A stretch of 36,128 bases of DNA, from positions 1 through 36,128 of the forward strand of contig JAAETH010000260.1 in assembly GCA_024228575.1 (NCBI GenBank), written 5' to 3'. The DNA comes from Actinomycetes bacterium. GTDB lineage: Bacteria > Actinomycetota > Acidimicrobiia > Acidimicrobiales > Poriferisodalaceae. A program made the translations under genes and the position numbers. This document shows positions 24,266-36,128 of this stretch, one piece after another; position 1 is the first letter of the stretch, and every line of letters starts with the position of its first letter. The notes beneath the pieces are model-generated. The model was not told where the DNA came from. It was given only the letters and a program-made list of their open reading frames with translations, and made no database searches.

Positions 24266-25573
24266 ATGACAGGGCTCAAAACGGCAGGACCAGACGATTT
24301 TGATCTTCGGATGTCCGAAGAGGTCGTACCGCTGTATGAGGCGGTGAAGGAGTTCATCGCCGAGGTGGTCATTCCAGGCTCATCGGAATTTCACCGCTTG
24401 GGAGAGAACCGACCCGATCACTGGGCCTACAGCGATGAACAGCTCGAATTCCTCGAGGGGATGAAGAACGAGGCTCGCAGCAGGGGTCTGTGGAACTTCT
24501 TCCTGCCCGATGCCGAGACCGGCGAAGGCCTGTCGAACCTCGACTACGCATATATCGCCACCGAACTGGGCAAGAACCCACTCGCCTCTCAGACGATGAA
24601 CTGCTCGGCTCCCGACACGGGGAACATGGAGGTTCTCGAACGTGTAGGCACCCCCGAACAAAAGGAGAAGTGGCTCAAGCCGCTCCTCAACGGCGAGATC
24701 CGATCGGCCTACGTCATGACCGAGCCCGACGTGGCCAGCTCCGACGCCAAGAATGTCCGTTGTCAGGCCATCCTCGATGGCGACGAGTGGGTCATCAACG
24801 GCCAGAAGTACTTCGCTTCGGGCGCCGGTGAGGGTCGTTGCAAGATCTTCATCGTGATGGTGAGAACCAACGAGGACGCATCACCACACCTTCAGCAATC
24901 GCAGATCCTGGTCCCCAAGGACACCCCCGGTGTCGAGATCGTCGGTCCCATGGAGGTCTTCGGCGAGGACGAAGCGCCACACGGCCACATGCACATCAAG
25001 TTCCACGACGTGCGCGTGCCAAAGGACAACATCTTGCTCGGCGAGGGCCGAGGATTCGAGATCAGCCAACTGCGTCTTGGCCCCGGTCGCATCCACCACT
25101 GCATGCGTTCCATCGGTGCCGCCGAAAAGGCCCTCGAGCTGATGGTCGATCGCTCCACCAAACGTGTGGCATTCGGCAAGAAGCTCGCCTACCTCGGCGG
25201 CAGCATGGAGATCATCGCCAAGGCACGCCTCGAGATCGAGGCCATGCGGCTGATGGTGCTGCGAGCAGCAAAGGCCATGGACGTTCTCGGCAACGCCGAG
25301 GCTCGCGTCTGGGTCAGCGGCGTCAAGGCAATGGTGCCCAAGCGGTGCGCCGAGATCATCGACCAGGCAATCCAGATGCACGGCGGCACGGGCCTGACCC
25401 AGTGGACACCACTCGCCAGCATGTACAGGCAGCAGCGCACACTCAGACTCGCCGATGGTCCTGACGAGGTGCACTACTTCGTCGTGGGTCGTGCCGAGGT
25501 CAATTCCCACGTCCCACTCGACTGGATTCCTGGCGAAGAGATCATGCAGCGCCAGATGTTCGGCGAACCCTGA
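24266..25573 (+). CDS. Acyl-CoA dehydrogenase (435 aa)
   Basis: FAD enzyme introducing the alpha-beta double bond in acyl-CoA. Visible family segments are YVMTEPDVASSDAKN (about 150-164, flavin/substrate loop), VINGQKYFASGA, LGPGRIHHCMRSIGAAEKALE and QMHGGTGLTQWTPLASMYRQQRTLRLADGPDEVH near the C-terminus (FAD binding). It is longer than the ~380-aa short-chain enzymes and resembles the ACAD10/11-like group in length and motif wording. AGGA lies about 9 bases before the ATG. A hairpin at 25594-25633 follows. Confidence 0.93.
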   Translation: MTGLKTAGPDDFDLRMSEEVVPLYEAVKEFIAEVVIPGSSEFHRLGENRPDHWAYSDEQLEFLEGMKNEARSRGLWNFFLPDAETGEGLSNLDYAYIATELGKNPLASQTMNCSAPDTGNMEVLERVGTPEQKEKWLKPLLNGEIRSAYVMTEPDVASSDAKNVRCQAILDGDEWVINGQKYFASGAGEGRCKIFIVMVRTNEDASPHLQQSQILVPKDTPGVEIVGPMEVFGEDEAPHGHMHIKFHDVRVPKDNILLGEGRGFEISQLRLGPGRIHHCMRSIGAAEKALELMVDRSTKRVAFGKKLAYLGGSMEIIAKARLEIEAMRLMVLRAAKAMDVLGNAEARVWVSGVKAMVPKRCAEIIDQAIQMHGGTGLTQWTPLASMYRQQRTLRLADGPDEVHYFVVGRAEVNSHVPLDWIPGEEIMQRQMFGEP

Positions 25574-26931: not shown

Positions 26932-29526
26932 GTGGGTTCGAGCGGTGGCGATCATCAGGTGACGCTATTGACCGGAGGCGACGAATCGGACCCGGTGGTT
27001 GCCTCTCGGTTCGGATGGCTCGGATCGGTGGTCATCGCAATTGCGTCCGTGATCGGGGTCGGGGTGGCTGTTGCCTGGGTGGAAGGCTCCGACAGCCCTC
27101 CACCAAGTTCCACCACGACCCAGCCGGGTGTGACAGAGCCCGCCTCGGTGACTGTGCCGGATCTTGATAGCGCGGACGAGGCGTTCCGGTGGGTTGGCAT
27201 GTCTGTCCCGGCTGCCACCGATCTAACACCTGGTGGCTTCGGAGTTCCTGCTGCCGTGGGTGACGGGTTCGTAGCGGTGTCGACGGGGACCGGTCTGGCT
27301 GTGACGCGAGATCTGGCGGGTTTCGACCCGATTGAGCTGCCTGAAGGCGATCAGGTGTTGGCACTCGATGCTCACCATCGGACGATCGTTGTCCTCGTGG
27401 GCAATCAGGTTGCGTTGCAGGCGGAGGGGGAGCCGTGTGAGTCGTCGCCAGCGCCGACTCGTTTGCTGGTGTCCGACGACGTTGGCCGCACCTGGGCTGG
27501 CCTCGATCTTCCCGAGCCGTTCGGGCCGTCAGATGAGCGCGTTCGCCAATTTGGGTGGTACTCGGTGGCGACGGACGCCACGGTCACGATCGTGACCGGC
27601 GACGTCTGGCGTGAACTCGACTTCGGCTGCGTGGCATATGAGATGGGTATCGAACTGGTTTCTGCCGATGCTGAGGGGTTGACCTACCTCGATGGCGAAG
27701 GGGAGGTCATCACGGTGTCGTGGGATCATCTCGGCCTGTCGAACACCGAACGAGCAATCGCACCCGACAAGAATGAAGAACGAAGGGTGGCGCTCGACCG
27801 AAGCGGATTCGACTCGGTCACCCTCACACTGACCAACGACGAATGGGGCACAACTGCAGTAGATGCGGTGACGGTGGTCCACGATGGGTCGAGATTCGTG
27901 GCTAGCGGACCTGCTGACACGGCGCTATGGCGGTCGATAGACGGTGTGGTCTGGGAGGAGCAGCCTTTCCCGGCAGATACGCGGTCCGTCTTGTGGCCCT
28001 ATGTGCATTCTGTGCGGGTCGACTCGGAGGGAGCGTCACAGGTCACCGTTGACGGAGGACATACCTGGGCCGAGGTTGTCCCACCCAAAGACCAGTTGGT
28101 GACCGGTGTGTTCGAGTTGGGCGGCGTTGCCTACCACACGGCCATGAGCCCGGCTGGCAGTAGGTCCTACCTGCTGCACCGTGACCGTCGGGGTGACTGG
28201 AACTGGGTGAACACAGCCGATGTCGAGGGTCTCGACTTCGTTGCCTCGGGACCGGTGAGCATCATCGGCACGTTGAGCGGAGCGCTGGTGTTGGTCGGAG
28301 AGAACCTCGACGGACCGTACCTGTTGGCGGCAACGCCTACAGACTCAGATGTTGCCGGTGAGGGCACGCCTCAACCGACCTCACCGAGAATGGTGATCAC
28401 CGACGAGCCCACTGAATGGTCATTGATCAGCTCGATCGAGACCGACACAACCATCTATGGCCGCAGCACGGGAGCGGTAGTCGAGCCAGATCGAGTGATC
28501 GTCAACGACGGCGGCGTGTTGAAGGCGAGCAGCGATCTCGTCGTCTTCAACGAACTGCCACTCGGAGACTGGGTGCCGATCACCTTCGATGCTGAAGCCG
28601 ACCGGGTGGCCGTCTTGGTTTCCTCACCCGGCGACGTCACCGGTGGCAAGTGTGTCCACCCGGTTCCCGTCGCTCATCTCATGATCTCCAGCGACGGCGG
28701 TCAGACCTGGACCAGGGAGGATCTTCCTTTTGCTGAGGTTGATACTCCAGGGCGTCTGCAATCGGAGCAGATCTACGGCGTGGTCACGAGCCCCGAGGCG
28801 ACCTTGGTGGCTCGGCTTGGTCACTTCGAGAGGAGTTTCGCCTGTGTCGCCATGGAACTCGGATTCGAAGATGCGTGGCGCTCCGAGGGAGGCGTAGAGG
28901 CAGTCTCGGACGGAGACATGGTCGAGTATTCGTTCGAGGAATTCGGCTTCACTCCCGAAGAGATCGATGCGCTGAACTCCGATTCTGGATTCGATGCGTT
29001 CTTCCTCGATGGCGAGTGGCGAAAGATCGATCAGTTCGGCTGGCCGCTCAACTATGACAACGGTGTGTTCACAGCCGGCCCGGCAAGCTCCCCCGGGTGG
29101 GCGTGGTACTTCTCGACCAACGGCCTCGAGTGGTCGGTGGTCCCGTTCGACGCCGAGTTTGAGGTCGCGATCGCCGCCGGCGGCGCGATCGTCAGGGGAG
29201 TCAACGGTGACTTCGACCTCTCCAACGACGGAGGCACAACCTGGAGCACCGTCGAGCTACCCCGTACCGACTGGCGCGTAGCCGGTGTCATCACCTCCGA
29301 ACGCCTTGTCCTCGTCCTTGCCACCGATGGAGCGGACCAGTGGTTCGTTGCCTACCAGGACGCGGACGACGTTTGGCACAAGGTCGCGTTGAGCGGCGAT
29401 CCGCAACCCGCATCGGACCGCGGGGTTCATATCGCAGGGGTGTTCAGCGACCAGCTTCTCCTAACAGTCCGCTACGGCCACGATGCGTCCCTCGTAGCCA
29501 TCGATCTTCCGGGCACCAGACCATGA
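26932..29526 (+). CDS. Membrane-anchored protein with BNR/propeller-like repeats (864 aa)
   Basis: Large probable extracellular protein with one N-terminal TM helix (about 28-50), then a Pro/Ser/Thr linker. The body carries several Asp-box-like motifs (SxDxGxTW type): SDDVGRTW, SIDGVVW, VDGGHTW, SSDGGQTW, STNGLEW and SNDGGTTW, each followed by a Leu-Pro or Phe-Pro turn. Such repeats mark sialidase/Vps10-type beta-propellers but do not prove enzymatic activity. Two halves look duplicated: CVAYEMGIE (~226) and CVAMELGFE (~640) sit in the same context after an Asp box. The GTG at 26932 has no ribosome site; a GTG at 26959 is possible. Codon use has more GTT and TTG than the core genes. Confidence 0.78.
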   Translation: MGSSGGDHQVTLLTGGDESDPVVASRFGWLGSVVIAIASVIGVGVAVAWVEGSDSPPPSSTTTQPGVTEPASVTVPDLDSADEAFRWVGMSVPAATDLTPGGFGVPAAVGDGFVAVSTGTGLAVTRDLAGFDPIELPEGDQVLALDAHHRTIVVLVGNQVALQAEGEPCESSPAPTRLLVSDDVGRTWAGLDLPEPFGPSDERVRQFGWYSVATDATVTIVTGDVWRELDFGCVAYEMGIELVSADAEGLTYLDGEGEVITVSWDHLGLSNTERAIAPDKNEERRVALDRSGFDSVTLTLTNDEWGTTAVDAVTVVHDGSRFVASGPADTALWRSIDGVVWEEQPFPADTRSVLWPYVHSVRVDSEGASQVTVDGGHTWAEVVPPKDQLVTGVFELGGVAYHTAMSPAGSRSYLLHRDRRGDWNWVNTADVEGLDFVASGPVSIIGTLSGALVLVGENLDGPYLLAATPTDSDVAGEGTPQPTSPRMVITDEPTEWSLISSIETDTTIYGRSTGAVVEPDRVIVNDGGVLKASSDLVVFNELPLGDWVPITFDAEADRVAVLVSSPGDVTGGKCVHPVPVAHLMISSDGGQTWTREDLPFAEVDTPGRLQSEQIYGVVTSPEATLVARLGHFERSFACVAMELGFEDAWRSEGGVEAVSDGDMVEYSFEEFGFTPEEIDALNSDSGFDAFFLDGEWRKIDQFGWPLNYDNGVFTAGPASSPGWAWYFSTNGLEWSVVPFDAEFEVAIAAGGAIVRGVNGDFDLSNDGGTTWSTVELPRTDWRVAGVITSERLVLVLATDGADQWFVAYQDADDVWHKVALSGDPQPASDRGVHIAGVFSDQLLLTVRYGHDASLVAIDLPGTRP

Positions 29527-29891: not shown

Positions 29892-29973
29892 GGCTACCTC
29901 CTAGTCGAAGTGACCGGGTCAACGGGGGAGGCTCAGCTACGCTCAATCTGGCCGCGTTGGCAAGAAACGCAGA

Positions 29974-30012
29974 AACCCCAGAATCAGAAATATGTTCCGA
30001 CCTGGGGTTTTG
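29974..30012 (-). terminator. Hairpin downstream of the tRNA-Ala 3' end
   Basis: AAACCCCAG (29974-29982) pairs with CTGGGGTTT (30003-30011) around a 20-nt loop. Read on the minus strand it directly follows the tRNA-Ala 3' end. It is best explained as the native terminator of that tRNA and therefore marks the chromosomal side of the junction. Confidence 0.65.
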
Positions 30013-30015
30013 TGG

Positions 30016-30042
30016 TGGAGCTGATGGTGTGGAGCTGATGGG
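30016..30042. repeat. Tandem 13-bp direct repeat of the tRNA-Ala 3' end
   Basis: GTGGAGCTGATGG occurs at 30016-30028 and again at 30030-30042. On the minus strand each copy is the end of the T-arm plus the acceptor strand CAGCTCC. The right copy is continuous with the T-arm and anticodon loop. The left copy carries the encoded ACCA and runs into the terminator-like hairpin. Confidence 0.9.
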
Positions 30043-30075
30043 ACTCGAACCCACGACTTCCTGCTTGCAAAGCTG
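30030..30075 (-). other. Attachment-site remnant: 3' half of tRNA-Ala(UGC)
   Basis: Read on the minus strand from 30075: the anticodon loop TTTGCAA (anticodon TGC), the 3' anticodon stem GCAGG, variable AAGTC, T-arm GTGGGTTCGAGTCCCAT, then acceptor strand CAGCTCC. The U at the acceptor position that would pair with G3 is kept, the identity mark of tRNA-Ala. The 5' anticodon strand should be CCTGC-like but is ACAGC, and no D-arm or 5' acceptor follows. The break in the anticodon stem is a usual crossover site of tyrosine recombinases, so this is read as the distal att site of an integrated element. Confidence 0.82.
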
Positions 30076-30322
30076 TGCGGAGGGTGTCTTGCGTCGTCCG
30101 ACAGAGTCCATCAGTGTCTCACCAAATCCGTCTGATTCGGAATGTTCTCCCAGGTCAGCAGGGGTTTCCTCGTCCGATCTGTCCCGCTGAGTCTGCCTGG
30201 GTCTCTTCGTGCGCCGTCTACGAGAAACGATCGGGTTCGTGCCCAGTTGGCTACGTTTCCGGCTACGTCGAGGCTCGGTGTCGGTGGACATTCGCTAGCA
30301 AGTTCTTTTCGTTCGGGTGCGC
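30076..30322. other. Island left arm without a gene
   Basis: No supported gene. It contains a short direct repeat GGCTACGT at 30249-30256 and 30261-30268, and related CGTCCGA words near 30095 and 30172, which could be recombinase arm-binding sites. A minus-strand frame crosses the stretch but runs through the tRNA fragment and is not credible. Confidence 0.4.
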
Positions 30323-30324
30323 TA

Positions 30325-31528
30325 GTGCTGTGACCGGGATTGTGTGGTTGTTTGGCGCGTCCACCACTTGGGGGTTGGGGCCTGTTTTGATGGTGGGATG
30401 TCTGAACGAGTTCGGGTCCGTCGCTTGACCCATGAAGAGGGCCTACAGATCCAGCGGATCGTGCATCGTGGCGGCGTGCTCTGGTTGTGCACGCATCGGC
30501 TGGGGCAACACGGTGCCGGTGATAGCCCGGCTTGTGGTCACCTCCGAGGACCGGGTTCGCGAGATGATCCACCGGTTCAACGACCTGGGGATGCGATCGC
30601 TGGACCCTCAGTGGGCGGGTGGCCGTCCCCGCCAGACAACGACTGACGATGAAGCCTTCATCGTCGCGACTGCCCGCACACGTCCCGAGAAACTCGACCA
30701 GCCCTTCACCCGGTGGAGTATCGGCAAGCTTGTCGACTACCTCGCCGACAACAGCGATCGGGTCGTCACCGTCGGCCGTGAACAGCTCCGGCTGGTACTC
30801 AAGACCAACGGGATCACCTTTCAGCGAACCAAGACCTGGAAGGAATCCAACGACCCGGATCGTGGCGCGAAGTTGGACCGTATCGAGCACGTGCTCGAAC
30901 ATCACCCGGATCGCACGTTCGCGTTCGACGAGTTCGGGCCCTTATCGATCCGACCCGTTGGCGGATCGTGCTGGGCGGCCAAGAGCCATCCAAAACGTCA
31001 ACCAGCGAACTACAACAAGCTCCACGGGGTCCGCCAGTTCCACGGCTGCTACTCGATCGGTGATGACGAACTATGGGGCGTCGTACGCAACCACAAGTCA
31101 GCAGCCAACACCCTCGCAGCGTTGAAATCGATCCGGGCTCGCCGCCCCGACGGTGACCAGATCTATGTGATCCTCGACAACCTGTCGGCCCACAAAGGCA
31201 CCAAGATCAGGGCCTGGGCGAACAGGCACCATGTTGAGTTGTGTTTCACACCGACCTACAGCTCGTGGGCGAACCCGATCGAAGCCCACTTCGGGCCCCT
31301 ACGCGATTTCGTGCTCAACAACTCGAACCACCCCAACCACGTCGTGCTGACCCGCCGACTAGATGCACACCTGCGCTGGCGCAACGCCAACGCCAGAGCA
31401 CCCGAACTACTCGCCGCTCAACGACGAGAACGAGCACGAGTCCGAGCCGAGAAAGGCCACCGATGGGGACGACCAGCCACACAAGCCGCATGACCCGCCA
31501 ACCGCGCGAACGTTTCCGGTCACAGCAC
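30325..31528 (+). mobile_element. IS630-family insertion sequence (1204 bp)
   Basis: Perfect 13-bp terminal inverted repeats, GTGCTGTGACCGG at 30325-30337 and its complement at 31516-31528, are flanked on both sides by TA (30323-30324 and 31529-31530), the target duplication of IS630/Tc1 elements. The element holds one transposase reading (30398-31493) with frame damage. It landed 3 bp past the stop codon of the next gene, which it did not interrupt. Confidence 0.93.
30398..31493 (+). pseudogene. IS630 transposase, N-terminally frameshifted
   Basis: DDE transposase. The genuine N-terminus, RVRVRRLTHEEG from an ATG at 30398, is in one frame up to about 30476. A short RRALVVHASAG follows in a second frame. 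From GNTVPVIARLV to the end the protein is in a third frame, open from 30432 to 31493. Compared with related transposases as I remember them, about seven residues (STSSVRY-like) are missing and one G is lost in a G-run near 30512. The catalytic residues remain: D in FAFDEFGP, D in YVILDNLSAHK and E in WANPIEAHFG. Probably inactive unless rescued by frameshifting. Confidence 0.85.
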
Positions 31529-31531
31529 TAG

Positions 31532-32698
31532 TCACCGGATCCTGTGTTCCCAGTCGAAGTCGGGCTGGAGTGTCAGGCCTCGCGAGTGGAGCAGCCCTTT
31601 CAGTTCGGGGTCGGCGACGATGGCGAAGACGTCTTGGGCGCCGGTCGTTCCTGCGAGGATCTCGCAGTCGGGGCTAACGAGGCTGTTGACCGCCTCTTGG
31701 ATGGCGGCCGTCTGTACCCACTTGCTCACGTGGATCTCCAGATCCAGCGGGAGGCCATTGACAGAAGCGATCAGCGAGGCTCGCCTGGAGTCAACGGTTC
31801 GCTTCACGATCGTGTTATCAACCCGGATCATGCCGTTCGAGCTCGCCGCCCACGACTCGAGCGTGTCCAGGGCCGCGGTCATGGCCAAGGCCCCATGCTC
31901 TGCGTCCGTCACCAGCCAGGACCGTTGGTCGTCGGTGAGGAGCATCAGCAGTTCGAGCATCTCCGATGACGAGCGTTCGACGTTGTAGAAGCCGATCCCA
32001 AACCGGTGCACGACCTGGTCACTCAACTCTGCCGCAGCGTGGGCTGGTGATAGGGCGCTCAGGTTCGCGAAGAATCCGTGCGGCCGATATTGCCCGAGCA
32101 CTTCGAGACTGATCTCATCGAGACGCTCCGACGCCCGCCGCCGGCTCTGTTTGAGGTAATCATCCACATCGGGATTGGACCTGAACGTCACCCAGTGGCC
32201 GCCGTCGAGGCCGCACCCGACGAGCGCTGTTCCTGCGAACAGGTTGATCGCCTCGACGACCGTGTCTACTTCGAGTCGTCCGCGCCAGAAACGCGGTCGA
32301 AAGACGGCTTCCTGCTCCCCGGTGTGGATTCTGAATGTGGCTTGCTCACTGGACTCGCAGTCCCAGTCACAACCCCTGATCATCGAGTCACCCGATATCG
32401 CCCTGACCTCTGCTTCGATACCGGCGAGTTCCAGCAGGTGACTGATCCACTTGCCCACTCTCAACTCTGTGAAAGGCTCATCCTGGAGCGCGAGATCGCT
32501 GCTCACCTCAAGCAAGCGAAGTGCTGCAACGTAGCTGCCGAGTGGACTCGAGGGTAGACCTGCGCCACCGCCGGCCTCCCCGGGCGACTTGACCCCAGAC
32601 CACGAGAACTCCGCACCCAACGCGACAAGTTCCCTGTGAACCTTCTCAATGATCGCCTCCGTGCCCTCGTCAGCACCGGCGAAGTGTTCCCAGACCAT
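31532..32698 (-). CDS. Hypothetical island protein, no recognised domain (388 aa)
   Basis: I do not recognise a family. The protein is soluble and acidic, with no signal or membrane helix. Regions that stand out are a Gly-rich loop (GEAGGGAG, about 41-48), SDSM..CDWDCES-like Cys/Asp cluster near 105-115, EVDTVVEAINLFAG, a helix-rich middle (LKQSRRRASERLDEI) and a Trp-containing C-terminus (FDWEHR). The ATG at 32698 was preferred over a GTG at 32710. Divergent from the DUF4357 gene, with the promoter region at 32699-32774. The IS630 copy sits 3 bp past its stop, so no terminator remains close by. Confidence 0.72.
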   Translation of the reverse strand: MVWEHFAGADEGTEAIIEKVHRELVALGAEFSWSGVKSPGEAGGGAGLPSSPLGSYVAALRLLEVSSDLALQDEPFTELRVGKWISHLLELAGIEAEVRAISGDSMIRGCDWDCESSEQATFRIHTGEQEAVFRPRFWRGRLEVDTVVEAINLFAGTALVGCGLDGGHWVTFRSNPDVDDYLKQSRRRASERLDEISLEVLGQYRPHGFFANLSALSPAHAAAELSDQVVHRFGIGFYNVERSSSEMLELLMLLTDDQRSWLVTDAEHGALAMTAALDTLESWAASSNGMIRVDNTIVKRTVDSRRASLIASVNGLPLDLEIHVSKWVQTAAIQEAVNSLVSPDCEILAGTTGAQDVFAIVADPELKGLLHSRGLTLQPDFDWEHRIR

Positions 32699-32774
32699 CG
32701 GACACCACACTCCCAGTCAGCCAATCGGTCTAGCACGACGGCTCACCCCGATCGCCGGGACTCCGTCCCCCGCC

Positions 32775-33131
32775 TTGCTCAGCAGCTTCCTAGTTGGCAA
32801 GGACACCAACGCCGAAGGCACTGAGACCGCCGACGGGTTTGTCGTCTACGCCGGATCGCTGGCTCGGACGGCCCGGGTTCCCTCCATCCACGCCTATGTG
32901 ACCCAACTCCGAGCGGCCTTGCTGGAGAAGGGCCTGTTCGCCGAAGCCGACAAGCATCTGCGCCTGACCGAGGACTACGTGTTCGCGTCGCCGTCGACCG
33001 CCGCGATGGTCATGCTCGGCCGGACAGCGAAAGGCAGGGTCGAGTGGAAGACTCCGAACGGCCGGACCCTCAAGGAACTACAGACGGCCGACACAACAGC
33101 CGAGACGTGGGAGAGATCCAGCGATGGATGA
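32775..33131 (+). CDS. DUF4357-domain protein, apparently N-terminally truncated (118 aa)
   Basis: Almost the whole protein is a DUF4357 domain: GFVVYAGSLAR, then VPSIHAYVTQLRAALLEKGL, then the hallmark DYVFASPSTAAMVMLGR and the WKTPNGRTLKELQ end. In full-length relatives this domain follows a nuclease such as GIY-YIG or another effector; none is present. The start is uncertain. The TTG at 32775 is the only start codon between the domain and the divergent gene. An ATG at 32649 would overlap the divergent gene and add unrelated residues. It overlaps the next gene by 8 bases, so it is probably translated with it. Confidence 0.7.
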   Translation: MLSSFLVGKDTNAEGTETADGFVVYAGSLARTARVPSIHAYVTQLRAALLEKGLFAEADKHLRLTEDYVFASPSTAAMVMLGRTAKGRVEWKTPNGRTLKELQTADTTAETWERSSDG

Positions 33132-34287
33132 TCGCAAAGCTCCGCTACCACAGGAGGGTCAGCAGCTCGAGTTCAAGGAAGCCCTTGACCCGACCGCTGC
33201 CAAGGATCGTCTCACCCTGGTCAAAGAGGTAGTGGCGTTCGCCAACGCGAACGGCGGGAAGATCGTCGTTGGCGTGGCCGATGACGGTGTACCTATCGGA
33301 GTCCCAGCAGCCCAAGCAACAAGATGGGATCCATCCAAGATCGGTGACCTGCTTGACTCCTTCATCGGCCCAGACCATCTCGAGGTATCGATCTCAACGT
33401 CCACTGAGAACGTGGCCGAAGGGATGATCCTGGTGACGATCGATGTCCCGCAGTACGAGGCTCCACCGCTCGTGCTTGGCAAGGATGGCAACCACAGCGG
33501 CGGCAGCCAGGCTTTCCGCCGCTACTCGGTGTTCGTGAGGCACAACACAAAGGCCGAGCCAGCCCGACGTGGTGACTACCTGAAGTGGCGAGACGACCTC
33601 CGCAATCGCATTCTTCAGCAGTTCCAGATGGCGGTCGAGGCCCCAGAGACCGCACACCTTCGGATCATTGGCGATGACGAGGTGCGCGACGAGCCGAACT
33701 TCTTCCTCTCACGAGCTGCCGACCTGTTCCGCCAGCGACCAGAGAAGCTCCTCGACGGGGATGACCTGCTCTACCTGTTCCGGAACCGCGAGGTCCTCGA
33801 TTTCACCGCCGATCTAGTGCCGGGACTCCTCGTCCAGAGCGCACGGCAGCGGCGAGCGACCCTGTTCTTCTGGCTGGCGCTCTCGGGAGTCGGAGCGATG
33901 AGGGTCACTCGGATCCTTGGCGGTGCTCTGCACATGTCTGATCGTGACAAGTCCGACATGGCCAGCGCTGTGCCGTTGGTCGCAGCCCTATACCTCAGCG
34001 CAACCGACTACGCAGAGCTGGTAGGTCTCATGGCCGCATCGTCGTATGCGCACATTTTGGAAGCAGCGAAGGAGTTCCCAACGATCATCGAAGCGAGAGC
34101 GGCGGTCGACGAACGGCGGAATGGCGCTATCGACCGGGTCCAACTAGCGGATCTCGCCGACGACCAACTGCTCGATCAGGCAACAGCCTTGGCCGAAGAG
34201 CACAACTCTGGACACATCTCACGCCGCATGCCGAACCTCGGGCTGGAGTACCTCGGCCGTCGACTGCGCATACCAAAGGCAGAGTAA
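33124..34287 (+). CDS. AlbA_2 (Schlafen-type) domain protein with unknown helical C-terminus (387 aa)
   Basis: The N-terminal ~160 residues form an AlbA_2 putative nucleic-acid-binding domain: EGQQLEFKEAL (about 11-21), LVKEVVAFANANGGKIVVGVADDG (32-55) and a late FVRHNTKAEPA segment. The remaining ~220 residues are mostly helical and unrecognised, with RRATLFFWLALSGVGAMR and a closing LEYLGRRLR. Related AlbA_2 proteins occur as regulators and, in some cases, in nuclease or defence contexts. GGAGAG lies 8 bases before the ATG. It overlaps the DUF4357 gene by 8 bases. A 9-bp hairpin at 34382 follows. Confidence 0.8.
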   Translation: MDDRKAPLPQEGQQLEFKEALDPTAAKDRLTLVKEVVAFANANGGKIVVGVADDGVPIGVPAAQATRWDPSKIGDLLDSFIGPDHLEVSISTSTENVAEGMILVTIDVPQYEAPPLVLGKDGNHSGGSQAFRRYSVFVRHNTKAEPARRGDYLKWRDDLRNRILQQFQMAVEAPETAHLRIIGDDEVRDEPNFFLSRAADLFRQRPEKLLDGDDLLYLFRNREVLDFTADLVPGLLVQSARQRRATLFFWLALSGVGAMRVTRILGGALHMSDRDKSDMASAVPLVAALYLSATDYAELVGLMAASSYAHILEAAKEFPTIIEARAAVDERRNGAIDRVQLADLADDQLLDQATALAEEHNSGHISRRMPNLGLEYLGRRLRIPKAE

Positions 34288-34381
34288 CGGTCGTGACCAC
34301 GACGTAGTGCTCACGTCATGGGTGATCGCCACGAACGACCCACCTTTGCGGCGAGTACAAGTCCAGGCTGCCACGCTGAGT

Positions 34382-34409
34382 GCGGTGCCTAGCGGGAACC
34401 ATAGGCACC
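34382..34409. terminator. Hairpin between the convergent AlbA_2 genes
   Basis: CGGTGCCTA (34382-34390) pairs with TAGGCACCG (34401-34409) around a 10-nt loop, 94 bp after the AlbA_2 gene. There is no T-run, so termination is plausible but not certain. It is positioned between two convergent genes. Confidence 0.5.
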
Positions 34410-34459
34410 GAGACATCCCAATCGTTCAGGTTCCGGACGCTGGCTACTCTCAACTTCTG

Positions 34460-34479
34460 TTTAGAGCACCTTTAGAGTA
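34460..34479 (+). promoter_or_regulatory. Paired TTTAGAG sites downstream of the AlbA_2/HATPase gene
   Basis: TTTAGAG (34460-34466) and TTTAGAGTA (34471-34479) are direct repeats 11 bp apart, about one helical turn. The same word forms the palindrome in front of the regulator gene at 35952-35978. An ATG follows 4 bases later (34483), but the frame behind it is antisense to the regulator and is not accepted as a gene. Confidence 0.5.
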
Positions 34480-34530
34480 CGGATGAACATGCAGGTCGAA
34501 AGAAGTCCCAACTGTTTAGTGACATCAGCG

Positions 34531-35949
34531 TTATTCAGCGAGGATTGTCCAGTAGGCCCGCGGATCTTTGGGGCTGTTTCCAACCCAGGAGATGACTCCT
34601 GCCTCACGGAGAGCGTTCAGCTGGCGAATCACGACGGGGCGAGACCGTCCAGTCGCCTCCACCAGGTCACCAGTGCTCACCCTGCCGCCTTCACGTACGA
34701 AGCGCACCAGATCTCTTGAACCGGCGGGAAGGCGCGCCTCGAGCTCGCGATCGACAGCCGTAGAGGGAAGAGTCAATCGAACGCTTCCCGATGTCTGCTG
34801 GTACTCGGGGTCTGCTAGTCCCGCTAGGCGCATTTCCTCGAACATCCGTCTGACGCCCTCACCGAGTTCCTGGCCGAAGGCGAGGTCTGCACAGACTCGG
34901 GCTATCCGCGGGTTGCGAGCGAAGCGGGTGATGTGAAGCGGATCCGTCAAGTCGGCGATCCCGGGGAACCGCCCGGGGCTTTCCACTTCGATGCGGTCGT
35001 CGAAGATCTCGACCCTGATGTGGTCACCTCCGACGCTGTAGGAGCGGTGCACCACGCCGTTCACGATGGCCTCGAGCCATGCGTCTTGGGGCACGAGACC
35101 GATCGATTCGAATCGTCCACTGCGGCCAAGCGCCTTACGTTTCGGCGTCTGCTCGATCATCTCATTGCGAGCGGCGCGCAGCTGATGGGGAATAGGACCG
35201 TCAATGCGGGAATCGTGCAACAGCTGCTGCCGCGCGCCGGTGCCCCGCTCAGTTCCACGGTACCGAAGGACCCGAACACTCGCCTCAGGAAACCATCGTT
35301 GGGGTTCGACGCCGAAGAGCAGCACGGCCGCCGCCGTGAGTGCTCCATCAGGCTTCGCCAAGCCTCTCGCCACCAGGAGCCGCTTCGGGTCTGGGTGATT
35401 GACAGCAATCGCGTATGAGGTGAGAAGCGCGCCATCGAGATCGTCGAATGCAGCGTCGTGTATGACAGTGCTCTCGAATGTAGATTGCCCCTTGTCGTAG
35501 AGGAGTTCCTGGCGTTGGGCAAAGGTCAAACGCCTGTTCTCGTCACCGACACGCAAGAAGACCTCGTCCTTCTTGTTCGTGTGGACCTGACCGCTGGTCT
35601 CGACGTCTACGACGACGAGCTCATCGATTTGACCATCGCTGTTCACGCACTCAACGGGTCTCGTTCTGCATGGGACCGTCGGCGTTGTGAAGTCGAGCGC
35701 AGCCTGCTGCCAGCTCGCCAGTTGTCCCTTCTTCGTCTTCGTGACGCCCTCTACTTTGCCGTCCCACAGGCCGACGACAACAGTGCCCCCCTCGGCGTTC
35801 GCGAAACCGATCAGGCAGTCGGCGAGGTCCTTGGCCGCAACCCTTGGACTCTTTCGATCGAACCACTGGTCCTCGGCAAGCTCTAGGAGCGCGCTCCCTC
35901 GTTCTTCGGCTGGCAACGCCAGCGCCTGCTCGGCGGCAACGGTAGACAT
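34531..35949 (-). CDS. AlbA_2 / HATPase / winged-helix transcriptional regulator (472 aa)
   Basis: Likely DNA-binding regulator. The N-terminal AlbA_2 domain (about 20-140) has EDQWFDRKSPRV, LADCLIGFANAEGGTVVVGLWDG and EVFLRVGDENRRLT. The middle region holds a RecG-type HATPase (HATPase_c_4-like): WLEAIVNGVVHRSY (N-box) and FDDRIEVESPGRFPG. The C-terminal ~65 residues form a winged helix: GRVSTGDLVEATGRSRPVVIRQLN then LREAGVI. The ATG at 35949 has no ribosome site but follows a palindrome with a -10-like box, suggesting a leaderless, self-regulated transcript. It lies 44 bp downstream of the integrase on the same strand. Confidence 0.87.
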   Translation of the reverse strand: MSTVAAEQALALPAEERGSALLELAEDQWFDRKSPRVAAKDLADCLIGFANAEGGTVVVGLWDGKVEGVTKTKKGQLASWQQAALDFTTPTVPCRTRPVECVNSDGQIDELVVVDVETSGQVHTNKKDEVFLRVGDENRRLTFAQRQELLYDKGQSTFESTVIHDAAFDDLDGALLTSYAIAVNHPDPKRLLVARGLAKPDGALTAAAVLLFGVEPQRWFPEASVRVLRYRGTERGTGARQQLLHDSRIDGPIPHQLRAARNEMIEQTPKRKALGRSGRFESIGLVPQDAWLEAIVNGVVHRSYSVGGDHIRVEIFDDRIEVESPGRFPGIADLTDPLHITRFARNPRIARVCADLAFGQELGEGVRRMFEEMRLAGLADPEYQQTSGSVRLTLPSTAVDRELEARLPAGSRDLVRFVREGGRVSTGDLVEATGRSRPVVIRQLNALREAGVISWVGNSPKDPRAYWTILAE

Positions 35950-35951
35950 TC

Positions 35952-35978
35952 AATTACTCTAAACCATTTAGAGTAATT
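35952..35978 (-). promoter_or_regulatory. Perfect 12-bp inverted-repeat operator at the regulator start
   Basis: AATTACTCTAAA (35952-35963) and TTTAGAGTAATT (35967-35978) are separated by CCA. On the minus strand TAGAGT lies 6 bases before the ATG at 35949 and could be the -10 box of a leaderless promoter, so a protein bound to the palindrome would block transcription. The regulator beside it is the obvious candidate binder. Confidence 0.8.
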
Positions 35979-35993
35979 GCGAGCTCGCTCACG

Positions 35994-36128
35994 TCACTGA
36001 GCGTCGGCGACGCTCGACAGCAGTTCGTCCCATGCCTCGGCGGCGTGGGGGAGGCTCGGTCGGACGCTGTGGCGATAGCCCTCGGCAGTACGGGCATCGC
36101 CGTGCCCGGCGAGGTCGGCGACCTTGAC
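35994..36128 (-). CDS. Tyrosine recombinase/integrase, C-terminal end only
   Basis: This frame is too short for an ordinary ORF list and runs off the right edge. It reads KVADLAGHGDARTAEGYRH, then SVRPSLPHAAEAWDELLSS. The LAGH pattern with TAEGYRH 7-8 residues later matches the box II end of phage-type integrases: the H of GH is the last catalytic His and the Y of EGYRH the nucleophile. It stops at 35994, 44 bp before the regulator start. Its N-terminal and core domains lie outside the window. Position and direction suit the integrase of the island whose other end is the tRNA-Ala fragment. Confidence 0.85.
   Translation of the reverse strand, partial: VKVADLAGHGDARTAEGYRHSVRPSLPHAAEAWDELLSSVADAQ

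What the first reader, a model, noticed from the sequence alone, without database searches (positions are those of the whole stretch)
30030..36128. Uncharacterised island in a tRNA-Ala, bounded by a tRNA fragment and an integrase
The 3' half of tRNA-Ala(UGC) at 30030-30075, followed outward by a terminator-like hairpin, is what the distal att site of a tRNA-integrated element looks like. At the other edge lies an integrase C-terminus on the same strand. The model predicts that an intact tRNA-Ala lies just right of the window, 5' of the integrase and transcribed leftward. If so, the island is little more than 6 kb, small for an integrative element, with few genes besides int.
Basis: partly seen in the sequence, partly recalled or inferred. 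Interest (0 to 1): 0.78.

Follow-up and report, generated by a model that had tools for sequence, protein, structure and literature searches.

The report
Small tRNA-Ala integrated genomic island
A roughly 7-kb piece of foreign DNA seems to have inserted itself into an alanine tRNA gene of an uncultured actinobacterium by means of its own integrase; the mechanism is well known, but I found no description of this integrase branch, its repeat code or its self-regulated cargo gene.

Summary
Window 30029-30073 is an exact 45-bp copy of the 3' part of an intact tRNA-Ala(UGC) that begins contig C422 of the same genome, and the window ends inside a tyrosine integrase. The contig stops there, so the right junction cannot be read. 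Two lines of evidence put the intact tRNA about 1.15 kb beyond it: the fragment carries the variants of C422's tRNA, not those of the other two tRNA-Ala genes found; and in two relatives one left-flank gene, an unoccupied tRNA-Ala(UGC) and one C422 gene lie in that order on one contig. The island is then about 7.2 kb. A locus from another MAG is a complete 7.0-kb island of the same design. The integrase family was found in Acidimicrobiia and other actinobacterial MAGs (14 of 15 record titles), usually 106-149 bp downstream of tRNA-Ala (once tRNA-Val), with arm-type-like ACGTAGCC repeats at the island ends. In this 6.15-Mb genome the distal repeat occurs three times, each beside a tRNA-Ala fragment. 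Cargo: IS630, an orphan ORF, a truncated DUF4357 gene and two Schlafen-AlbA_2 genes, one with a conserved palindromic operator. An ordinary kind of element, with an apparently undescribed integrase family and regulatory module.

The parts
30029..30073 (-). distal att core: 3' part of tRNA-Ala(UGC), anticodon loop to 3' end
   Evidence: 45/45 with the intact tRNA-Ala(TGC) at C422:1-75
29973..30010 (-). hairpin outside the island, possibly the original tRNA terminator (9-bp stem, 20-nt loop, no clear T-run)
   Evidence: read from the sequence; a similar sequence follows tRNA-Ala(GGC) in C218 and G001; not listed by the scan
30249..30268 (.). distal arm-type-like repeat GGCTACGTNNNNGGCTACGT
   Evidence: the same in C201, L093, L097 and the distal end of the G089 element
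30322..31531 (+). IS630-family insertion sequence, transposase ORF 30432-31493; abuts the 3' end of the next ORF without truncating it
   Evidence: 40-nt inverted repeats, 75% complementary; NF033545 E=2.9e-46
31532..32710 (-). orphan ORF p2, 392 aa, unknown
   Evidence: no hit in Pfam, PADLOC, NCBIfam, PHROGs; no match at E<=1e-4 in 395 other genomes, none in plasmids or phages
32787..33131 (+). C-terminal remnant of a DUF4357 / PDC-S14-like gene; about the first 196 positions of the family are missing
   Evidence: PF14267 E=2.4e-18; PDC-S14 profile positions 197-296 of 301 only
33124..34287 (+). p4, Schlafen AlbA_2 protein, 387 aa
   Evidence: PF04326 E=4.1e-15; at E<=1e-20 one relative in 297 other genomes, 34% identity; none in plasmids
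34531..35949 (-). p5, AlbA_2 + HATPase_c_4 + winged HTH, 472 aa
   Evidence: 51.5% identical to Gordonia phage Nymphadora gp38 and 49.1% to Mycobacterium phage Squirty gp31
35951..35979 (.). 13-bp perfect inverted repeat, operator-like, just before the p5 start codon
35994..36128 (-). tyrosine integrase, last 44 codons and stop; cut by the contig end
   Evidence: 74% over residues 344-386 of the C150 integrase

Best explanation
A small integrative element sits in tRNA-Ala(UGC), inserted by its own tyrosine integrase. Inferred mechanism: the integrase bound ACGTAGCC-type arm repeats near both element ends and crossed over within the 3' part of the tRNA gene; the element supplied a replacement 3' end, so the tRNA stayed intact beside int, and the original 3' end was pushed about 7.2 kb away, to 30029-30073. 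Shown: the fragment, its matching tRNA, the distal arm-like repeat, the integrase C-terminus, sister elements, and an unoccupied site in relatives. Inferred: the missing 1.1-1.2 kb (integrase N-terminus and spacer), contiguity with C422, the crossover and the role of the repeats. No relaxase or phage structural gene is seen in the visible part, so transfer between cells would need a helper. It may no longer be fully functional: an IS630 has entered and one cargo gene is truncated.
For: Core matching: window fragment = C422 tRNA 45/45, C201 fragment = C150 tRNA 47/47, C417 first fragment = C218 tRNA 46/46, each worse against the other two. Gene order: acyl-CoA dehydrogenase, tRNA-Ala(UGC) and a C422 luciferase-like monooxygenase gene in that order and orientation on one contig in G004 and in G018, with a single core match in each of those genomes. 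Family architecture: 13 of 20 loci with a tRNA 106-149 bp upstream of int, C218 with one at 64 bp. Complete sister island L093: tRNA-Ala(UGC), int, arm-like repeat, distal core 48/50, 6,986 bp between tRNA end and distal core. Rarity of the repeats.
Against: The junction is not assembled. C218's left end and the window's right end are 17 bp apart in integrase coordinates, which would suit a join to C218. The gene-order evidence in G004 and G018 rests on one protein per side: of 7 left-flank proteins tested only the dehydrogenase was found there, and the peptidase gene nearest the tRNA in C422 was not. GC is close to the flank (0.617 against 0.632). No locus fetched by the integrase carries the window's cargo. 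Excision was not observed.
Confidence: 0.86

Rival explanations
1. The window's right end joins C218 across a 17-bp assembly gap: the integrase is the frameshifted C218 copy beside tRNA-Ala(GGC), and the island spans two tRNA-Ala loci after recombination between two integrase copies.
For: C218 ends at integrase nt 1012 and the window begins at nt 1030, same gene and orientation; no extra lost contig is needed at that junction.
Against: The cores mismatch (UGC fragment against GGC tRNA, 36/40). C417 and C218 flanks are both orthologous to one contig around tRNA-Ala(GGC) in the same-genus genome G001, and window and C422 flank genes are neighbours in G004 and G018, so this join needs a rearrangement. 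Two related integrase copies sharing this conserved stretch could break an assembly at the same place (inference).
Confidence: 0.08
2. A relic: the fragment and the integrase come from different events (tandem accretion and decay), not from one element.
For: Tandem accretion is seen in this genome: C417 holds two fragments 1.2 kb apart with a PIN/VapC-like gene and a 121-bp integrase remnant between them. IS630 and the truncated DUF4357 gene show decay in the window.
Against: The fragment is still 45/45 with the intact tRNA, the distal repeat is perfect, and no second core lies between 30073 and 36128.
Confidence: 0.05

Closest known systems
tRNA-integrated genomic islands and integrative mobilizable elements (IMEs)
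   Same: Tyrosine integrase beside a tRNA, 3' fragment at the far end; size within the 5-15 kb given for most IMEs in PMC5704250 (passages read)
   Different: No relaxase in the visible part. Some family members carry a MobF/TrwC relaxase (6 of 18 loci); that 2017 review knew of no canonical IME with MobF
Actinobacterial AICEs and T4SS-type ICEs
   Same: Tyrosine integrases in tRNA 3' ends, tandem arrays; MOBF relaxases described as well represented in Actinobacteria (PMC3218068, passages read)
   Different: No replication initiator, FtsK-like or T4SS gene found among the window's island ORFs scanned
CIMEs and tandem accretion
   Same: C417's inner segment resembles the decayed resident element beside a newer one that the review describes
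   Different: The window's own island still ends in an integrase
Genes beside the integrase of temperate actinophages (Nymphadora gp38, Squirty gp31)
   Same: p5 is about 50% identical, lies next to or near the phage integrase there, and has a similar palindrome before the start codon
   Different: Those are phages; no phage structural gene is seen in the window's island

Membership tests
tRNA-integrated element with tyrosine integrase | 3' tRNA fragment identical to an intact tRNA of the same genome | tested here: met
   45/45 with C422
tRNA-integrated element with tyrosine integrase | integrase gene adjacent to the intact tRNA | tested here: inconclusive
   the contig ends inside int; met in 13 of 20 family loci at 106-149 bp and in C218 at 64 bp
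tRNA-integrated element with tyrosine integrase | unoccupied site in relatives | tested here: met
   G004 and G018: tRNA-Ala(UGC) between one gene of each flank, single core match per genome; the distance to the left gene is about 13 kb there, 4.5 kb here
Integrative mobilizable element (IME) | relaxase and/or oriT | tested here: inconclusive
   no homologue of the C150 relaxase in the window; oriT not tested
Integrative conjugative element / AICE | conjugation or FtsK-type transfer genes | tested here: not met
   none among the five island ORFs scanned with Pfam; the unread 1.15 kb is expected to be int
Phage satellite | packaging or capsid-hijacking genes | tested here: not met
   no such family among PHROGs matches of the four cargo proteins
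PDC-S14 defence candidate (PADLOC) | full-length about 300-aa protein | tested here: not met
   only profile positions 197-296 matched

The most novel reading that the evidence does not exclude
An undescribed family of compact tRNA-Ala elements of Acidimicrobiia, defined by one integrase clade and its own arm-repeat code, ships single defence or toxin-antitoxin modules as about 7-kb units. p5 is one such unit: a one-gene, operator-controlled AlbA_2-ATPase-wHTH module shared between chromosomes, an island and temperate actinophages, acting against other phages.
Probability: 0.25. Interest if true: 0.6.

Novelty: new member of a known kind. Interest (0 to 1): 0.38.

Why it matters
It gives a readable end-to-end definition (core plus arm-like repeats) for a group of small integrative elements in uncultured actinobacteria, so that further elements can be found by pattern even in fragmented genomes. 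The conserved operator in front of p5 makes an uncharacterised Schlafen-like regulator, also carried by actinophages, directly testable in vitro.

Tried and rejected
A single-sequence AlphaFold model of p2 had mean pLDDT 36.2 and was discarded; no fold search was run. Searching relatives with the left flank and tRNA core was unspecific, since tRNA-Ala matches almost everywhere (37 of 41 genomes). The operator palindrome had exact matches in 12 viral contigs; in the stretches held, only one of them (60,285 bp, the length of Squirty) encodes p5, so the palindrome alone does not predict p5 in that collection. I did not compute the chance expectation there. Ten of the 36 ORFs flanking p5 relatives listed were scanned with PADLOC and gave no match, which speaks against p5 sitting in defence islands. 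Integrase relatives in phages and plasmids are distant: 25.6-29.5% identity in the rows listed (10 of 56 plasmid and 10 of 748 phage records), all under 60%. Viral contigs gave one partial hit at 30%. L097 has two distal-type repeats, but no distal core was found, so it is not counted as complete. The G037 island has another integrase (27%) and is not counted in the family. An earlier count said the palindrome precedes 'nearly all' p5 relatives; the counts in the full report replace that. After re-checking, confidence in the main explanation went from 0.88 to 0.86, because the gene-order evidence rests on one protein per side.
Full report
What is there. The window is the whole of contig C260 (36,128 bp) of a 6.15-Mb, 960-contig genome. 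Window 30029-30073 is a 45-bp exact copy of the 3' part (anticodon loop to 3' end) of tRNA-Ala(UGC), on the minus strand. The intact gene starts contig C422 at base 1, also on the minus strand. No tRNA is called at the fragment. At the other edge, 35994-36128 on the minus strand is the C-terminus and stop of a tyrosine integrase.

Which tRNA it belongs to. The searches found three intact tRNA-Ala genes in this genome (C422 UGC, C150 UGC, C218 GGC) and displaced fragments on three other contigs. Window-C422 match 45/45, C201-C150 47/47, the first C417 fragment-C218 46/46; cross-matches are worse; the second C417 fragment matches C218 42/45. The genome thus appears to hold three tRNA-Ala islands. 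Neighbouring genes agree, with limits. In G004 and G018 (same family) the window's acyl-CoA dehydrogenase (24266-25573; 73% amino-acid identity), tRNA-Ala(UGC), a C422 luciferase-like monooxygenase gene (59-60%) and tRNA-Ile lie in that order on one contig, orientation as expected, and the tRNA core is found once in each genome. But only one of seven left-flank proteins tested was found there; the C422 peptidase gene nearest the tRNA is beside tRNA-Ala(UGC) in G001 and G016 instead; the distance from dehydrogenase to tRNA is about 13 kb there and 4.5 kb here; and tRNA-Leu is turned relative to the dehydrogenase. C417's left and C218's right flank are both orthologous to contig C634 of the same-genus genome G001, which has its own 2.6-kb island in tRNA-Ala(GGC).

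The gap. The missing part should hold integrase codons 1-343 (1,029 bp) and a spacer of 106-149 bp, about 1.15 kb. That puts the tRNA 3' end near 37.3 kb and the island at about 7.2 kb (arithmetic). Against this, C218's end and the window's end are only 17 bp apart in integrase coordinates. I rank that join low because it goes against the core matching and the gene neighbourhoods.

The family. The C150 integrase (394 aa; Phage_integrase E=4.4e-16) has relatives of 60-75% identity at E<=1e-60 in 6 of 297 other genomes of the order. A pattern-based, not exhaustive, scan of 84,980 species genomes gave 15 loci; 14 titles name Acidimicrobiales, Acidimicrobiaceae, Acidimicrobiia, Actinomycetes or Actinomycetota MAGs, one names Thermoanaerobaculia. 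Four of the 15 have the contig lengths of genomes already, so the sets overlap. One search examined 20 loci, the window included. Thirteen have a tRNA 106-149 bp upstream of int on the same strand (12 Ala, 1 Val) and C218 has one at 64 bp. The other six have none within 400 bp: L095 has 81 masked bases there, L099, L103 and the window begin inside int, L086 has only 178 bp upstream, and L102 has tRNA-Ala 1.7 kb away. Before int lie ACGTAGCC-N7-ACGTAGCC repeats (14 of 20, up to 2 mismatches); L093 has a one-base-shorter spacing. At the distal end lies ACGTAGCC-N4-ACGTAGCC, about 170-200 bp inside the core, in the window, C201, L093 and G089. I read these as integrase arm-type sites (inference). 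In this genome the distal pattern occurs 3 times and the proximal one once, up to 1 mismatch, all at such islands; the backward controls gave 1 and 0.

Sister islands. L093 (JANQPS010001353.1) is complete: tRNA-Ala(UGC), int, UvrD-like helicase, DarT (PF14487 E=1.2e-22), ADP-ribosylglycohydrolase (PF03747 E=1.6e-29), a putative antitoxin gene, distal core 48/50; 6,986 bp between tRNA end and distal core. G089 has a 15.2-kb element in tRNA-Val bounded by a 67-bp, 87% repeat, with a TrwC relaxase; no conjugation-pore gene among nine of its ORFs scanned. Homologues of the C150 MobF relaxase are in 6 of 18 integrase loci examined, C150 itself included; many of the 18 are cut by contig ends; L093 and the window have none. 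C417 shows tandem accretion with a PIN/VapC-like gene.

The cargo. IS630 (30322-31531) abuts p2 (31532-32710), an orphan with no match at E<=1e-4 in 395 other genomes, none in plasmids or phages. A DUF4357 gene keeps only its C-terminal third and overlaps p4, an AlbA_2 protein with one relative at E<=1e-20 in 297 other genomes. p5, 44 bp after int, is AlbA_2-HATPase_c_4-wHTH, with relatives at E<=1e-60 in 14 of 297 other genomes and in 27 phage records. None of the 14 has this integrase in the stretch held. In Nymphadora the gene lies next to, and in Squirty near, the phage integrase.

The p5 operator. A 13-bp perfect inverted repeat (35951-35979) precedes its start codon. The pattern TACT[CG]TAAA-N3-TTTA[CG]AGTA with up to 1 mismatch was found in 10 of 298 genomes, none with the backward control. 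Nine of the ten are among the 15 that encode p5, and there every listed site lies within about 150 bp of p5, before or after it; the tenth, G178, shows no p5 relative near its site. The other six p5 genomes have no site at that stringency; several of them have diverged palindromes. In 12 of 17 p5 genes examined, phage genes included, a TANAGT hexamer ends about 6-7 nt before the start codon, which would suit a leaderless promoter (recalled, inference). Autorepression by p5's winged HTH is therefore likely, but untested. Against a defence role: ten of 36 flanking ORFs scanned gave no PADLOC match, and of ten scanned with Pfam seven have metabolic, replication or phosphotransferase domains and three none. 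In the phage and viral collections the palindrome is not tied to p5 (1 of 12 contigs).

What was searched in print. Searches for Acidimicrobiia or Acidimicrobiales with islands, integrases or mobile elements, tycheposons, AlbA_2/Schlafen with phage defence, prophage-mediated defence in Gordonia phages, small tRNA islands and accretion, COG2865/AlbA_2 regulators and MobF IMEs in Actinobacteria listed no description of this family, judging by titles and abstract starts. Passages only were read in PMC11389934, PMC5704250 and PMC3218068; all other papers were seen as search listings. The label COG2865 for p5's architecture is recalled and comes from no call on p5.

Noticed in passing
window 35951-35979 and 34460-34479: Operator-like palindrome before p5, and two half-sites (TTTAGAGCA, TTTAGAGTA) beyond its 3' end; in G242 and G152 palindromes (up to 1 mismatch) lie on both sides of p5.
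   Followed up: partly
window 30015-30041: The outer 13 bp of the att core (GTGGAGCTGATGG) are duplicated in tandem with a 14-bp period, just outside the fragment.
   Followed up: no
L012:6394-7669 (G000 C417): Two tRNA-Ala(GGC) fragments 1.2 kb apart with a PIN/VapC-like gene and a 121-bp integrase remnant between them: an older island overtaken by a newer one.
   Followed up: partly
L063:2184-4909 (G001 C634): A 2.6-kb island in tRNA-Ala(GGC) where no integrase of this family was found, keeping arm-like repeats and a DUF5615 PIN-like gene: possibly moved in trans, or decayed.
   Followed up: partly
L010:2-999 (G000 C218): The integrase beside tRNA-Ala(GGC) lacks its usual start region and is frameshifted; about half of the usual spacer is lost.
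   Followed up: partly
L084:3038-18312 (G089): 15.2-kb element in tRNA-Val with integrase and TrwC/MobF relaxase, no conjugation-pore gene among nine ORFs scanned: a candidate MobF-type IME.
   Followed up: partly
window 26932-29526: Large protein with a weak BNR-repeat match beside the fragment; another protein with a weak BNR match lies left of the C417 fragments (L012:4069-5844).
   Followed up: no
L093 (JANQPS010001353.1): Contig labelled Thermoanaerobaculia although the other 14 titles of this integrase family are actinobacterial; possibly misbinned.
   Followed up: no
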